Source: Gaiellales bacterium (GTDB lineage: Bacteria; Actinomycetota; Thermoleophilia; Gaiellales; JAICJC01). From it: 48,836 nt of DNA. Of the stretch, positions 36,571 to 43,645 are shown piece after piece. The notes under the pieces are model-generated. The model did not search any database, was not told where the DNA came from, and worked only from the letters and a program-made list of their open reading frames with translations. The position numbers and the translations under genes are program-made. The DNA lies in contig DASUHM010000059.1 of NCBI GenBank assembly GCA_036273515.1, positions 1 through 48,836 of the forward strand. The letters are read 5' to 3'. The stretch's first letter is position 1. Each line of letters starts with the position of its first letter.

Positions 36571-37647
36571 CTACTGCGTCAGCTCGACGGTGAACGCCGT
36601 GTTCGACTGTGGGTTGTAGGGGCCGGTGGTGCCCATGGTGGCCGAGGTGTCGAGCGTGACGAACACGCCGTTCACCTCCTTGCCGTCGCTGTTTCCGCAG
36701 TACGTGGGATGGGCGGGGTCGCCGCAGCTCGTGATCACGAACCAGGCGAAGCCGACGACGGTCATCGGCGCGCTCGTGCCATCGGGCCATGCGCTCTGGC
36801 CGCTCTGGTTCGTGAGGACGGGGATGATCACGAGCTGCGGACTGTTGGGGTCGAGGAGCGTCGCCGTCCCGTCGGCCTGGAACCGGACGATCTGGTTCAG
36901 CGACTCCCAGCTCGTGATCCGCTGGTTCAGGCCCTGGGCCGTGGGGCCGCTGTTGTTGCCCGGCTTCGTCGGGATCGTCTCGCCGACCGAGACCGGGCAG
37001 ACCGCCGTCGATCCGGCGATCTCGTCCGAGTAGATGCTGGCGCCGTTTGGCACCGGGCAGTTGGCGTTGTTCACGTAGGGGAGGCTGATCGCGCCGTTGT
37101 TCGCGTTGGCCGTGTCCTTGGTGTAGATCGGGTACGGCTGGCCGGGCGTGTAGCTGCCCTGAAGCACGCCCCACGGCATGACGCCGATCCCGTTCATCTG
37201 CGTGAACGACTCGATCGTCGCCCGCGCCTTCCCCGACACGGTGACCGAGTGGATCCCGAAGATCCCCGCGAAGCCGGCGTTCACGCTGCGCGACGCGGTC
37301 ACCGTGACGGAGTCGTTCGGCGCCAGATTGCTCGTCGACGACACGGCGTGCGAGTCGGCGGGCTTGCCGTTGTTCGCGTACTCGCTGTTGGCGTAGCTGA
37401 TCGACGTGCCCGAGCCGCCCGGGATCCCGGTGGCGCCTGCCAGCGCCGCGGCGTCGGCCGCGCTCTGAACCTGGGAGCGGTTCACCGACCACAAGCCGTA
37501 GTCGATAACGAACGCGGCCACGCCGAGGAGCGACATGAGAAACAGGACGAGGAGCACGACCGCCTGCCCGCTTTCCGAACAGCTGCGACGTGCTCGCTCG
37601 TCCCGCCGGCGGCAGGAGGTAGAGGAGGAGTGCCATCCGTGACCCAT
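36571..37647 (-). CDS. TadG-like secreted/pilus-associated protein
   Basis: A 358-residue protein. The N-terminal membrane helix (GQAVVLLVLFLMSLLGVAAF) and the following SQVQSAADAAALAGA match the TadE/TadG Flp-pilus assembly group. The large C-terminal part (APNDSVTVTASRSVNAGF and many Asn/Gly/Thr residues) should lie outside the membrane. The four Cys pairs suggest disulfides. No other tad or pilus gene is visible, so it is an isolated gene. ATG 37647 is preferred to an upstream in-frame codon. It is divergent from the sigma factor gene. Confidence 0.82.
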   Translation of the reverse strand: MGHGWHSSSTSCRRRDERARRSCSESGQAVVLLVLFLMSLLGVAAFVIDYGLWSVNRSQVQSAADAAALAGATGIPGGSGTSISYANSEYANNGKPADSHAVSSTSNLAPNDSVTVTASRSVNAGFAGIFGIHSVTVSGKARATIESFTQMNGIGVMPWGVLQGSYTPGQPYPIYTKDTANANNGAISLPYVNNANCPVPNGASIYSDEIAGSTAVCPVSVGETIPTKPGNNSGPTAQGLNQRITSWESLNQIVRFQADGTATLLDPNSPQLVIIPVLTNQSGQSAWPDGTSAPMTVVGFAWFVITSCGDPAHPTYCGNSDGKEVNGVFVTLDTSATMGTTGPYNPQSNTAFTVELTQ

Positions 37648-37808
37648 GCAGCGAAACGGACCCCGACGGCGGCCGTTCCCTGCGGTCTGCCTACGCAAAT
37701 CCCCCACCGGAGTGACACCCAGCTGCTAGCGAAATGAGGAGTTCCGCCGATAATTTGGAGAGGGGCGCAGGAATTCTCCCGCCCCCGTGTCAGGGAAGGT
37801 GTGCAGAG

Positions 37809-39263
37809 GTGCTGGACCAGGACTCGCGGACAGGCGCGCGACTCACGTCGCTGTACGAGGCGTATGCCGCCGACGCGTTCCGCTACGCGCTGCACCTCAC
37901 CGGGCGCCGCGAGGACGCCGAGGACGTCGTCCAGCACGTCTTCATGCAGGCACACGCGACGCTCCTGGGCGGGCGCGAGCTCGTGAACCCGCGGGCCTGG
38001 CTCATCAAGGCGACGAAGCATCGCTCGCTGAACCTGCTCCGCGACCGCCGCGACACGCCGTCGGCCGAGGTCGATGCGCCGGTGCCGTTCGCGTCCGGCG
38101 AGAGCGAGGCCGAGGTGCTCGCGGAGGTGCGGGCGGCGCTGTGGTCACTGCCCGAGACCCAGCACCACGCCTTCGTGCTGCGGCACTGGAGCGGCCTCTC
38201 CCAGGATGAGATCGCCGAGGTGCTTGCGACGACGCCCGGCGCCGTCGAGTCGCTCCTCGTGCGGGCCAGGGCGACCCTCGTCGCCGAGCGTGACGACACC
38301 GACTCCGAGTGCGCCGGCGTGCGCAGCCGGCTCGCCCGCATGCTCGCGCCGACGCCGGCGCACGAAGCGCACCTGGCCGGCTGCCGGCGCTGCCGCACGG
38401 CGCAGTCGCGGCTGCTGCGGGCGTCCGAGTTCGCCACGGCATTCGCGCTCGTGCCCAGCCCCCACGTCCTCGGCGCACTCGCCTCGGCGATCCCCGGGTT
38501 CGGCGCCTCGGGCGCGGCCGCCGGCGCGTCGGCGACCGGCGCTGCAGTCGGCACCGGAAGCGGCGGTGCGGCCGTCTCGACCGTGTCGGCCGCGACGAAG
38601 GCCGGGCTGCTCACCAAGGTCGCCATCGCTGCGACCACCGCTGCGGTGGCGGTGACGGCGGTGCACCCACTGCGCACCGCCGTCACCCATGCCCTCTTCC
38701 ACCGCAACTCCGCCGGCGCGGCGGCGATCGCGCCGAAGCGCGCCGCGGCCCCTCCCGTGTCCTCGCACGCGGCCGGTACGGCCGGCGCGGCCGGGACGGC
38801 GTCGCGCGGCGGGCCGCCGGCCACGAAGGGGAGCGGCGCCCCGGCGAAGGGCGGGCCCGGAACGACGCCGCCCGGCAAGGGGCCGGGGCACCCGGGTCGT
38901 GGTGGGAACGGCGGCGCGGGCGGCGGGAACGGCAACGGCAACGGCGCCGGGAACGGCAACGGAAGTGGCGCGGGCAACGGGAACGGCCAGGGATCCGGCG
39001 CGACCCACGGCAAGTCGGGGGCCGCACCCGGCCGCACGAAGGCCCCGGGCGGCGCCGCGACGGGCAAGGGCGCGACGAACGCCAACGGCTCGAAGGCCAA
39101 CGGTGGCGGCGACGCCTCCAAGCCTCCCGCCAAGACGAAGGCCACGGCGACGACCGACCCCGGCACCGGAGGCACGACCACGTCGCCCGCCGGCGGTGGC
39201 AACGGCGACGGCGCCGCGAACGGCAACGCCGACGGCAACGGCAAGGGGAACGGCAAGGCCTGA
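37809..39263 (+). CDS. ECF-type sigma factor fused to zinc-finger anti-sigma motif, membrane helix and Gly/Asn-rich tail
   Basis: A 484-residue protein. Sigma region 2 occupies about residues 10-80 (LYEAYAADAFRYALHLTGRR) and region 4 about 105-155 (LPETQHHAFVLRHWSGLSQD). A ZAS-type zinc motif His188-x3-Cys192-x2-Cys195 (AHEAHLAGCRRCR) follows, with Cys168 as possible fourth ligand. Then come an Ala-rich membrane helix (about 268-288) and a long extracellular-looking tail rich in Gly, Asn, Lys and Pro. A sigma factor and its membrane anti-sigma domain thus appear fused. GTG 37809 follows GGGAAGG; ATG 37734 is less likely. Confidence 0.85.
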   Translation: MLDQDSRTGARLTSLYEAYAADAFRYALHLTGRREDAEDVVQHVFMQAHATLLGGRELVNPRAWLIKATKHRSLNLLRDRRDTPSAEVDAPVPFASGESEAEVLAEVRAALWSLPETQHHAFVLRHWSGLSQDEIAEVLATTPGAVESLLVRARATLVAERDDTDSECAGVRSRLARMLAPTPAHEAHLAGCRRCRTAQSRLLRASEFATAFALVPSPHVLGALASAIPGFGASGAAAGASATGAAVGTGSGGAAVSTVSAATKAGLLTKVAIAATTAAVAVTAVHPLRTAVTHALFHRNSAGAAAIAPKRAAAPPVSSHAAGTAGAAGTASRGGPPATKGSGAPAKGGPGTTPPGKGPGHPGRGGNGGAGGGNGNGNGAGNGNGSGAGNGNGQGSGATHGKSGAAPGRTKAPGGAATGKGATNANGSKANGGGDASKPPAKTKATATTDPGTGGTTTSPAGGGNGDGAANGNADGNGKGNGKA

Positions 39264-39272
39264 CCGCAGGAA

Positions 39273-39848
39273 ATGCGGCGCTCGCGTGTCTGGTCACGCG
39301 TGGGTCGCGGCGACTGGACAGGATCGCGCACCTCGCAGGGGCCGGCGCAGCTCCCGAGGCTGATCGAGGCGAGCTTCGCCCAGCTTCAGGAGGACATGGT
39401 CCGCTACCTGCGGACGGTGGCCGGGGCGGACGTTGCCGAGGACGTCGCCTCGCAGGTGTGGGTCGAGGTGGTCGGTCGTGCCTCGGAGTTCCAGGGCGAC
39501 GAGGCGGCGCTTCGGCGGCTGGTGTTCGCCACCGCCAGGCGGCGGGCGCTCGACCAGCACAGGCGCTGGTGGCGGCGGAAGGTCAACCTGCACCCGCCGG
39601 GCGATCGCGTGCTCGAGCTGGCAGCCTCGGAGGATCCCGAGGTCATCGAGCGTGACCGCGCGCTCACGTGGATCGCCCGCCTGCCGAGGGCCCAGGCGGA
39701 AGTCGTGCTGCTGCGCGTGATCGGGGATCTCAGCACCGGGGAGGTCGCGGAGATGACCGGCCGCTCGCCCGGTGCCGTGCGCGTCCTCCAGCATCGCGCC
39801 CTTCGCCGCCTGGCCTCCGACCTGCGCCGCGCTCGCGGCGAGGTGTAA
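39273..39848 (+). CDS. ECF-type RNA polymerase sigma factor
   Basis: A 191-residue sigma factor: region 2 with DMVRYLRTVAGADVAEDVAS and RRLVFATARRRALDQHRRWW, region 4 with ALTWIARLPRAQAEVVLLRV and TGEVAEMTGRSPGAVRVLQH (helix-turn-helix). It directs RNA polymerase to a small promoter set. It follows the fused sigma gene by 9 bases and precedes a membrane protein, its presumed anti-sigma factor, by 3 bases. The first 25 or so residues are atypical, so the true start may be further in. Confidence 0.88.
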   Translation: MRRSRVWSRVGRGDWTGSRTSQGPAQLPRLIEASFAQLQEDMVRYLRTVAGADVAEDVASQVWVEVVGRASEFQGDEAALRRLVFATARRRALDQHRRWWRRKVNLHPPGDRVLELAASEDPEVIERDRALTWIARLPRAQAEVVLLRVIGDLSTGEVAEMTGRSPGAVRVLQHRALRRLASDLRRARGEV

Positions 39849-39851
39849 CGC

Positions 39852-40646
39852 ATGGGCCGGCTCGCGCGTTCTCTCCTGTGCATGGGCAAGCCCCGACTCG
39901 ACATGACCACCGCCGACAGGATCCTCGCGGGCACCGTCGATCCTGCCGACGCACCACCGGGGTACGAGGCGCTGGTCGCGTTGATCGCGGCCGCGCGCAC
40001 GCCACATGCGCCCACGACCACCGTGGCGTCCGGCCGCGCGCCGGCGCCGCGTCGTCAGAGGAGGCACTACATGCTCGCAGCCCCGCCGTTCCGGTCCCGT
40101 CTGTCCATCGCCGCCGCGGCCGCGACGCTTGCGCTCGCGTCCGGCACCGCCTACGCGACGGGCCTGCCCGCAGCCGCATCGGCGACTGCGCGCGGCGTCC
40201 TGCACTCGCTCGGCGTCTCGACCGACTCGCCTGCGAAGACTCCCTCGCAGCCGGCCGGGACGCACGGAGCGGCCGTCTCGTCGACGGCGCGGGCGACGAC
40301 GGCGACCGGGGCGGCGAAGGGCGCGGAGATCGCTGCGCTCGCGAGCAACGGGCGAAGCAAGGCCGGCCAGGGCGGCGATGAGTCGACGACCGCGAAGGGC
40401 GGCGCCGACGCGAAGGGATCCGGTCACGGGCACGGGGCCGAGATCTCGGCGCTGGCGCACTCCACCACGGGCACGGCGGGCGTCAAGGGTGCGACCATCT
40501 CCGCAGCTGCGAGCAACGGGCGAAGCCACGCCGGCCAGCATGGCCAGAACGGCCACAGCGGGGGCTCGAACGGATCGGCCTCCGCGGCCGGCAACCACGG
40601 CGGTGGCGGCGGACAGGGGGCCGGCTCCGGCCACGGAGGGTCGTAG
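39852..40646 (+). CDS. Probable membrane anti-sigma factor with low-complexity exported tail
   Basis: A 264-residue protein. The cytoplasmic N-terminal part (DRILAGTVDPADAPPGYEAL, then VALIAAARTP) resembles the short regulatory part of actinobacterial membrane anti-sigma proteins. A membrane helix follows at about 85-107 (LSIAAAAATLALASGTAYAT). The rest is Ala/Gly/Ser/His-rich and contains the repeat unit ASNGRSxAGQ twice and related GAEISALA/GATISAAA segments. It lacks a clear zinc motif. It starts three bases after the sigma stop and is inferred to hold that sigma at the membrane. Confidence 0.65.
   Translation: MGRLARSLLCMGKPRLDMTTADRILAGTVDPADAPPGYEALVALIAAARTPHAPTTTVASGRAPAPRRQRRHYMLAAPPFRSRLSIAAAAATLALASGTAYATGLPAAASATARGVLHSLGVSTDSPAKTPSQPAGTHGAAVSSTARATTATGAAKGAEIAALASNGRSKAGQGGDESTTAKGGADAKGSGHGHGAEISALAHSTTGTAGVKGATISAAASNGRSHAGQHGQNGHSGGSNGSASAAGNHGGGGGQGAGSGHGGS
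40341..40538 (+). repeat. Imperfect 30-base direct repeat within the anti-sigma-like gene
   Basis: Copies at 40341-40370 and 40509-40538 start GCGAGCAACGGGCGAAGC and end GCCGGCCAG, differing at two of thirty positions. They encode the Ala-Ser-Asn-Gly-Arg-Ser-x-Ala-Gly-Gln unit of the exported tail. Confidence 0.75.
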
Positions 40647-42718: not shown

Positions 42719-43645
42719 ATGCCCGAGGCCCACGACGACCTGCGGCCGCTGCTCTTCTCGATCGCCTACCGCATGCTCGGAAGCGTGGTCGAGGCCGAGG
42801 ACATGGTGCAGGAGGCCTACGTTCGTTACCAGCGGGCCGTCGGCGAGGGCACCGCGGTCGACGACCCCAAGTCGTACCTCTGCGCCGTCACGACGCGCCT
42901 GTGCATCGACCACCTGCGCTCGGCCCGGGTGCGCCGCGAGAGCTACGTCGGGCCGTGGCTGCCGGAGCCGCTCCTGACCGGCACGGTCGTTCCCGACGGC
43001 GCCCGGATCGTGGAGGACGCCGACTCGGTCTCGATGGCGTTCCTGCTCGTGCTCGAGCGGTTGACGCCCGTCGAGCGGGCGGTGTTCCTGCTCCACGACG
43101 TCTTCGACTACGGCTACGGCGAGATCGCCGAGATCGTCGCGCGCAGCGAGGACAACTGCCGCCAGCTGGCCGCCCGCGCCCGCCGCCACGTGCGCGAGGA
43201 GCGGCGCCGCTCCGAGACCTCGGCCAGCCGCCGCGAGGCGCTCGCCGACCGCTTCTTCGAGGCGGTGAACGAGGGCGACATGGACGGCCTGGTCGAGCTC
43301 CTGGCCGAGGACGTCGCCGTGGTCGGCGACAGCGGCGGCGTGCGGCCGATGTGGCCGCGCCCGATCGTCGGCCGCGACCGGGTGGTGGCCCTGCTGGCCG
43401 GTCCCGGCGCCCAGCCTGGCCGGCTCGACATGACGATGCGGCGCACCGAGATCAACGGCGCCCCCGGCGCGCTCGTCACGGACGCGAACGGCGGGCTGCT
43501 CTACGCCATCCTGCTCGACGTCGCGGCGGGCGGGATCATCGAGACCGTGCGGACGGTGCGGAACCCGGCCAAGCTCGCCCACCTCGGCCCCGTCGGCGAC
43601 CTGCGCGCGGTCATGCACTCCCGTGGGGCCGGCCGGGAGGGGTAA
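42719..43645 (+). CDS. ECF41-type sigma factor (SigJ-like) with C-terminal SnoaL-like domain
   Basis: A 308-residue sigma factor: region 2 with LRPLLFSIAYRMLGSVVEAE and DMVQEAYVRYQRA, region 4 with LERLTPVERAVFLLHDVFDY and YGEIAEIVARSEDNCRQLAA, then a SnoaL/NTF2-like domain from about residue 175 (RREALADRFFEAVNEGDMDG). In ECF41 proteins this domain, with a DGGGK motif, controls activity in place of an anti-sigma factor. Here the motif position reads GDSGGVRPMW, a departure. No classic COE-type partner gene is next to it; the neighbour is the Gfo/Idh enzyme. Confidence 0.92.
   Translation: MPEAHDDLRPLLFSIAYRMLGSVVEAEDMVQEAYVRYQRAVGEGTAVDDPKSYLCAVTTRLCIDHLRSARVRRESYVGPWLPEPLLTGTVVPDGARIVEDADSVSMAFLLVLERLTPVERAVFLLHDVFDYGYGEIAEIVARSEDNCRQLAARARRHVREERRRSETSASRREALADRFFEAVNEGDMDGLVELLAEDVAVVGDSGGVRPMWPRPIVGRDRVVALLAGPGAQPGRLDMTMRRTEINGAPGALVTDANGGLLYAILLDVAAGGIIETVRTVRNPAKLAHLGPVGDLRAVMHSRGAGREG

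What the first reader, a model, noticed from the sequence alone, without database searches (positions are those of the whole stretch)
37809..40646. Sigma factor fused to its own zinc anti-sigma motif and membrane tail, next to a split version of the same system
The first protein has sigma regions 2 and 4, then a His-x3-Cys-x2-Cys zinc motif, a membrane helix and a long Gly/Asn-rich tail. The next two genes encode a separate sigma factor and a membrane protein with a similarly low-complexity repeat tail. A fused and a split sigma/anti-sigma system side by side suggest duplication followed by fusion or fission, with exported low-complexity domains as possible wall or surface sensors. Some C-terminally extended membrane ECF groups (ECF52/53-like) are known, but this pairing with Gly/Asn/His-rich tails looks unusual.
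Basis: partly seen in the sequence, partly recalled or inferred. Interest (0 to 1): 0.68.

Follow-up and report, generated by a model that had tools for sequence, protein, structure and literature searches.

The report
Membrane-tethered fused sigma factor, plus neighbour
One protein joins a gene switch (sigma factor) to a zinc-binding domain that probably locks it and to a likely membrane anchor with an exported tail; this design is common across the bacterium's class, and the separate sigma factor next door is an unrelated neighbour, not a split copy.

Summary
Gene A (37809-39263) encodes sigma regions 2 and 4, a C-x19-H-x3-C-x2-C motif, a moderately hydrophobic segment and a 196-residue G/A/N-rich tail in one open frame. 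Genes B (sigma factor) and C (membrane protein, low-complexity tail) follow 9 and 3 bases later. Orthologues of A are fused in one frame in nearly all relatives, and the sigma4-zinc junction was found in 206 of 299 genomes of the class (84 of 114 genera), up to 11 copies per genome. The fusion is therefore an ordinary, class-wide Thermoleophilia-type design, close in layout to ECF52/53/48. By tree it is not the NPCBM-bearing ECF52-like group. B belongs to a different, well-supported clade of split sigma factors, with SigD/ShbA-like best matches. C has no zinc motif. In three relatives A and B-C lie on different contigs. 'Duplication then fusion or fission' is not supported. Best model: A is held in cis by its zinc domain at the membrane and released by proteolysis (inferred). 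New points: fused relatives in the phylum carry PASTA, NPCBM or Ig-like domains in the tail's place, and A or B-C modules sit beside TadE/G-like genes at 4 of 11 loci in the family.

The parts
37809..39263 (+). Gene A: fused ECF sigma factor - zinc domain - probable TM - Gly/Ala/Asn-rich tail, 484 aa, GTG start
   Evidence: orthologue conservation begins near this start
37851..38051 (+). sigma region 2 of gene A
   Evidence: PF04542 hit at these coordinates, 44 bits
38124..38279 (+). sigma region 4 of gene A
   Evidence: PF08281 1.1e-13
38310..38393 (+). ZAS-like zinc motif of gene A, C168-x19-H188-x3-C192-x2-C195
   Evidence: four ligands invariant across homologues; zf-HC2 only 10.7 bits in A itself, 30 bits, over cut-off, in homologue L048
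38607..38663 (+). probable membrane-spanning segment of gene A (residues 267-285)
   Evidence: KD mean 1.83; similar segment in orthologues
38673..39260 (+). G/A/N-rich tail of gene A, inferred to be outside the cell
   Evidence: composition and codon-position GC; AF2 pLDDT below 50 for residues 211-308
39273..39848 (+). Gene B: split ECF-type sigma factor, 9 bases after A (start may be GTG 39300)
   Evidence: PF08281 2.2e-12; best PDB matches 9isn 1.6e-12 and SigD region 4 3vep 1.3e-9; separate clade
39852..40646 (+). Gene C: probable membrane protein partner (likely anti-sigma) of B, no zinc motif
   Evidence: paired with B in G001, G002, G003, G004
40260..40376 (+). first copy of the ~40-residue repeat in C's tail
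   Evidence: 9.2e-16
40425..40544 (+). second copy of the repeat, ending in the near-invariant AS-G-[KR]SHAG
   Evidence: 2.6e-18
36571..37707 (-). TadE/G-like (Flp pilus-assembly-like) protein, divergent from A; possible target or partner
   Evidence: PF13400 5.4e-11, PF09977 2.5e-5; next to A or B-C in relatives

Best explanation
Gene A is a one-protein signalling device: an ECF sigma factor whose C-terminal zinc (ZAS-like) domain acts as a built-in anti-sigma factor and is followed by a membrane anchor and a disordered exported tail. At rest the sigma part is held at the membrane by its own zinc domain. A change at the cell surface or wall, read by or through the tail, leads to proteolytic cutting near the membrane, and the freed sigma part directs RNA polymerase to its promoters. 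Genes B and C form a separate sigma/membrane anti-sigma pair of different ancestry that has come to lie behind A in this genus and is probably co-transcribed. Shown here: domain order, conserved zinc ligands, class-wide fusion, separate ancestry of B, pairing of B with C. Inferred: membrane insertion, in-cis inhibition, proteolytic release, the signal, and C inhibiting B.
For: Domain order in one frame. Zinc ligands invariant and homologues over the zf-HC2 cut-off. Junction model present in 206 of 299 class genomes. Fused relatives in the phylum carry known exported sensor-type domains at the tail's place: NPCBM (L275, 3.3e-27), PASTA (L280, 1.7e-17), Ig-like Big_7 (L281, 1.2e-8). The review PMC8999054 assigns the same layout (ECF48/52/53) to regulation by proteolysis, and IutY is an experimentally shown case. 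Truncating the extension of ECF52 SCO4117 leaves activity (PMC5826349). The genome encodes M50 site-2-type proteases. B in its own 99* clade, paired with C in relatives.
Against: The zinc domain of A itself is below the zf-HC2 cut-off, and AF2 plus Foldseek did not confirm the fold. The hydrophobic segment is only moderately hydrophobic. M50 proteases occur in all 14 control genomes, so their presence says little. G004 has a copy that ends right after the zinc domain, without membrane part. No experiment exists for this clade.
Confidence: 0.68

Rival explanations
1. A and B-C arose from one system by tandem duplication followed by fusion or fission.
For: They are adjacent, both encode a sigma factor plus a membrane segment and a low-complexity tail; AU test does not quite reject an A+B clade (p = 0.055).
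Against: Separate clades; 33% identity and E = 8e-5 between A and B sigma parts, no closer than to other sigma factors; C lacks zinc ligands; modules unlinked in G001, G003, G004; B-C-like pairs also exist in family f3 (G025), so the B lineage is older than the adjacency.
Confidence: 0.06
2. The zinc domain of A is a cytoplasmic redox or metal sensor that changes shape and releases sigma without any cut; the tail is only a wall-spanning or condensate-forming filler.
For: CHCC ligands typical of redox-sensing ZAS proteins; tail sequence less conserved than the rest (31-60% identity in the tail against 52-79% in sigma); G004 copy lacks membrane part and tail.
Against: A long exported-type extension is kept in almost all homologues and is replaced by real sensor-type domains in others; in membrane-bound anti-sigma domains the zinc motif is thought often to be structural (PMC7406223).
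Confidence: 0.15
3. A, B and C form one interlocked circuit: A's zinc domain or C's cytoplasmic part also binds the other sigma factor.
For: Tight gene spacing (9 and 3 bases) and same order in G002:C68.
Against: A and B-C occur separately in other members of the family.
Confidence: 0.11

Closest known systems
ECF52 (SCO4117 of Streptomyces coelicolor)
   Same: ECF sigma - zinc finger - TM - low-complexity extracytoplasmic part in one protein, Actinomycetota (PMC5826349)
   Different: A has no carbohydrate-binding domain, tail is G/A/N- not Pro-rich, and its sigma part is far from the NPCBM-bearing homologue L275 in the tree
ECF53 and ECF48
   Same: Described as sigma fused to a likely ZAS domain and one or two TM helices, extension up to 400 residues (PMC8999054)
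   Different: Reference sequences were not held, so sequence membership could not be tested
IutY (ECF243) of Pseudomonas putida
   Same: Sigma factor fused to a membrane anti-sigma; released by proteolysis (PMC8999054)
   Different: Iron-uptake surface signalling responding to a siderophore; no zinc motif or low-complexity tail is described in the passages read
SigD-RsdA of Mycobacterium tuberculosis / ShbA
   Same: B's sigma part has ShbA as best NCBIfam model and SigD region 4 among its best PDB matches; C, like RsdA, is a zinc-less protein with one hydrophobic segment
   Different: B is far below the ShbA model's cut-off (66 of 209 bits); RsdA family PF16751 does not match and profile comparison of C with RsdA gives 0.5% probability

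Membership tests
ECF sigma factors with fused ZAS and membrane extension (ECF48/52/53 kind) | sigma2 and sigma4 in one frame with a zinc (H-x3-C-x2-C) motif | tested here: met
ECF sigma factors with fused ZAS and membrane extension (ECF48/52/53 kind) | membrane helix after the zinc motif | tested here: inconclusive
   KD 1.83, conserved position; no dedicated topology predictor available
ECF52 | C-terminal carbohydrate-binding (NPCBM) domain | tested here: not met
   no such Pfam hit in A, present in L275
ECF52 | sigma domain within the ECF52 clade | tested here: not met
   L275 falls with L284 and L282 in a 100-supported group, separated by a branch of 1.78; L275 taken as ECF52 by its NPCBM layout, not by name
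ECF53 / ECF48 | sequence in the published group | not testable with these tools
   group models and the 2021 classification paper are not held
Class I zinc anti-sigma domain (ZAS, PF13490) | profile score over cut-off | tested here: not met
   A 10.7 bits against 22.2; homologues over the cut-off (L048 30.0 bits)
Class I zinc anti-sigma domain (ZAS, PF13490) | helical fold like RsiW/ChrR | tested here: inconclusive
   helices 143-178, 183-191, 193-214 predicted at moderate confidence, but Foldseek matched region 4 only
RsdA (C as anti-SigD) | RsdA_SigD_bd domain PF16751 | tested here: not met
   no hit in own genome; hhalign 0.5%

The most novel reading that the evidence does not exclude
Thermoleophilia run a large, so far unnamed family of one-protein surface receptors in which sigma factor, inhibitor and membrane sensor are fused and the exported part is exchangeable: disordered low-complexity tails here, PASTA, NPCBM or Ig-like domains in other Actinomycetota. 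In the window's family this system, together with the B-C pair, watches over Tad-type pilus or surface proteins encoded next to it, with the disordered tail acting as a wall-depth or tension gauge.
Probability: 0.15. Interest if true: 0.65.

Novelty: new variant of a known kind. Interest (0 to 1): 0.38.

Why it matters
Fused sigma/anti-sigma proteins have been studied in very few cases (IutY, SCO4117). A class with up to 11 copies per genome, and relatives with swapped exported domains, gives a natural series for asking how a tethered sigma factor is inhibited in cis and what its outer part senses. It also corrects the picture for this locus: the neighbouring split pair is not the ancestor or product of the fusion.

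Tried and rejected
Sequencing-error or misjoin explanation: rejected, the fused frame recurs in relatives and codon-position GC is coding throughout. B-C as split A: see the tree. C as RsdA: not supported. Structure as proof of a zinc finger: inconclusive. Shared promoter upstream of A: one conserved block between the window and L029, no clear sigma consensus, not pursued. C's tail repeat as a widespread domain: only the own genome and two other genomes of 149 had hits, one of them in a secreted-looking protein. The single genome-contig scan mostly fetched generic sigma factors because its patterns fell on sigma motifs.

Full report
What is there. Gene A (37809-39263, GTG start, 484 residues) has sigma-70 region 2 and region 4, then C168-x19-H188-x3-C192-x2-C195, a Gly/Ala linker, a hydrophobic segment at 267-285 and a 196-residue tail rich in Gly (30%), Ala (20%) and Asn (9%). 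Third-position GC stays at 0.91-0.94 along the whole frame, so the tail is coding. Gene B (39273-39848) is a plain sigma factor. Gene C (39852-40646) is a likely one-span membrane protein with no family hit.

Is it more than chance? The four zinc ligands are invariant in homologues down to about 28% identity. The same layout in one frame was found in relatives of the order. A model of the sigma4-zinc junction matched 206 of 299 genomes of the class, in 84 of 114 genera, often with several copies (G054: 11), mostly in long open frames and with most of the junction covered; the weakest matches may be partial. Named members come from Solirubrobacter pratensis (L071) and a Thermoleophilia MAG (L074). 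In 296 genomes of the phylum 70 had a match, many of them partial or plain sigma factors, but some fully fused.

Is the neighbour a split version? In a tree of 89 sigma domains A lies with the fused proteins (55 rows, support 82; inner set of 34 rows starred at 95), and B lies with nine other split sigma factors in a starred group (99). Holding A and B together costs 27.8 log-likelihood units, AU p = 0.055, so this is strong but formally borderline (only 147 columns). C aligns with the partners of B's orthologues and has no zinc ligands. A and B-C are adjacent in the window and in two places of G002 (with C detected at one of them), but on separate contigs in G001, G003 and G004. Adjacency is thus a local event. 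A true tandem of fused sigma factors does exist elsewhere: in family f3 and in L070, L072, L074 a fused sigma without zinc ligands precedes one with them.

How it probably works. The layout predicts a sigma factor held at the membrane by its own zinc domain and freed by proteolysis. This is the mechanism given in the literature for ECF48/52/53, experimentally shown for IutY, and partly tested for SCO4117 (PMC8999054, PMC5826349). For A itself inhibition, cutting and signal are inferred. AlphaFold2 with eight sequences gave a confident sigma2, moderate sigma4 and zinc-domain helices, and a disordered tail start. A second model and Foldseek search recovered region 4 but not an anti-sigma domain, so the zinc fold rests on sequence: A scores 10.7 bits on zf-HC2, below the cut-off, while homologue L048 scores 30.

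What the tail may do. Across orthologues the tail keeps its character but less of its sequence (31-60% identity), and other members have Pro/Thr-, Lys/Glu- or Ser-rich tails. In other Actinomycetota the same place carries NPCBM (L275), PASTA (L280) or Ig-like domains (L281), and within the order L042 has a weak SH3 match. C's tail is different: it has a repeated block ending in AS-G-[KR]SHAG that is conserved across its family.

Neighbourhood. A TadE/G-like gene lies next to A in the window, in G002:C68 and in G001:C189, and two flank B-C in G004:C5. That is 4 of 11 module loci, three of them independent; about 5e-4 for at least 3 of 10 within 5 kb by a simple binomial. This was noticed after the fact and needs testing in more genomes.

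Compared with the known. A works like ECF52/53-type proteins, but fails two ECF52 tests (no NPCBM; sigma part far from the NPCBM-bearing group). ECF48/53 membership could not be tested. B's best models are SigD/ShbA-like but below cut-off, and C is not detectably RsdA. Verdict: a real and well-built system, ordinary for its class, a new variant of a known kind; the split-and-fused pairing is most likely coincidental.

Noticed in passing
window 42719-43645: A third sigma factor within 6 kb: an ECF41/SigJ type with a SnoaL-like domain (TIGR02957, 347 bits), outside the A and B clades in the tree.
   Followed up: partly
window 36571-37707; L029 7002-8078; L032 5403-6410; L065 1-820 and 2447-3604: TadE/G-like genes sit beside A or B-C modules at 4 of 11 loci of the family.
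   Followed up: partly
L043 4613-7077, L044 4252-6640, L040 4792-7230, L070, L072, L074: Conserved tandem of two fused sigma-TM-tail genes, the first without zinc ligands, the second with them.
   Followed up: partly
L280 745-2397; L275 659-2833; L281 595-2886; L042 805-2781: Fused sigma-zinc-TM proteins whose exported part is PASTA, NPCBM, Ig-like or (weakly) SH3; no paper found on a PASTA-bearing ECF sigma in the held library.
   Followed up: partly
window 40260-40544; L245 1075-1869: C's tail repeat (HG..[IV]S..A ... AS.G[KR]SHAG) partly recurs in a secreted-looking protein of another genome (NHGKYVSAVAHAAPKGKLHGSVVSTVAKSDLGKK).
   Followed up: no
L031 3165-3791 (G004): An A orthologue that stops right after the zinc domain: a soluble sigma-ZAS form or a broken gene.
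   Followed up: partly
G054 (class member): Eleven matches to the fused sigma-zinc junction in one 4.4 Mb genome.
   Followed up: no
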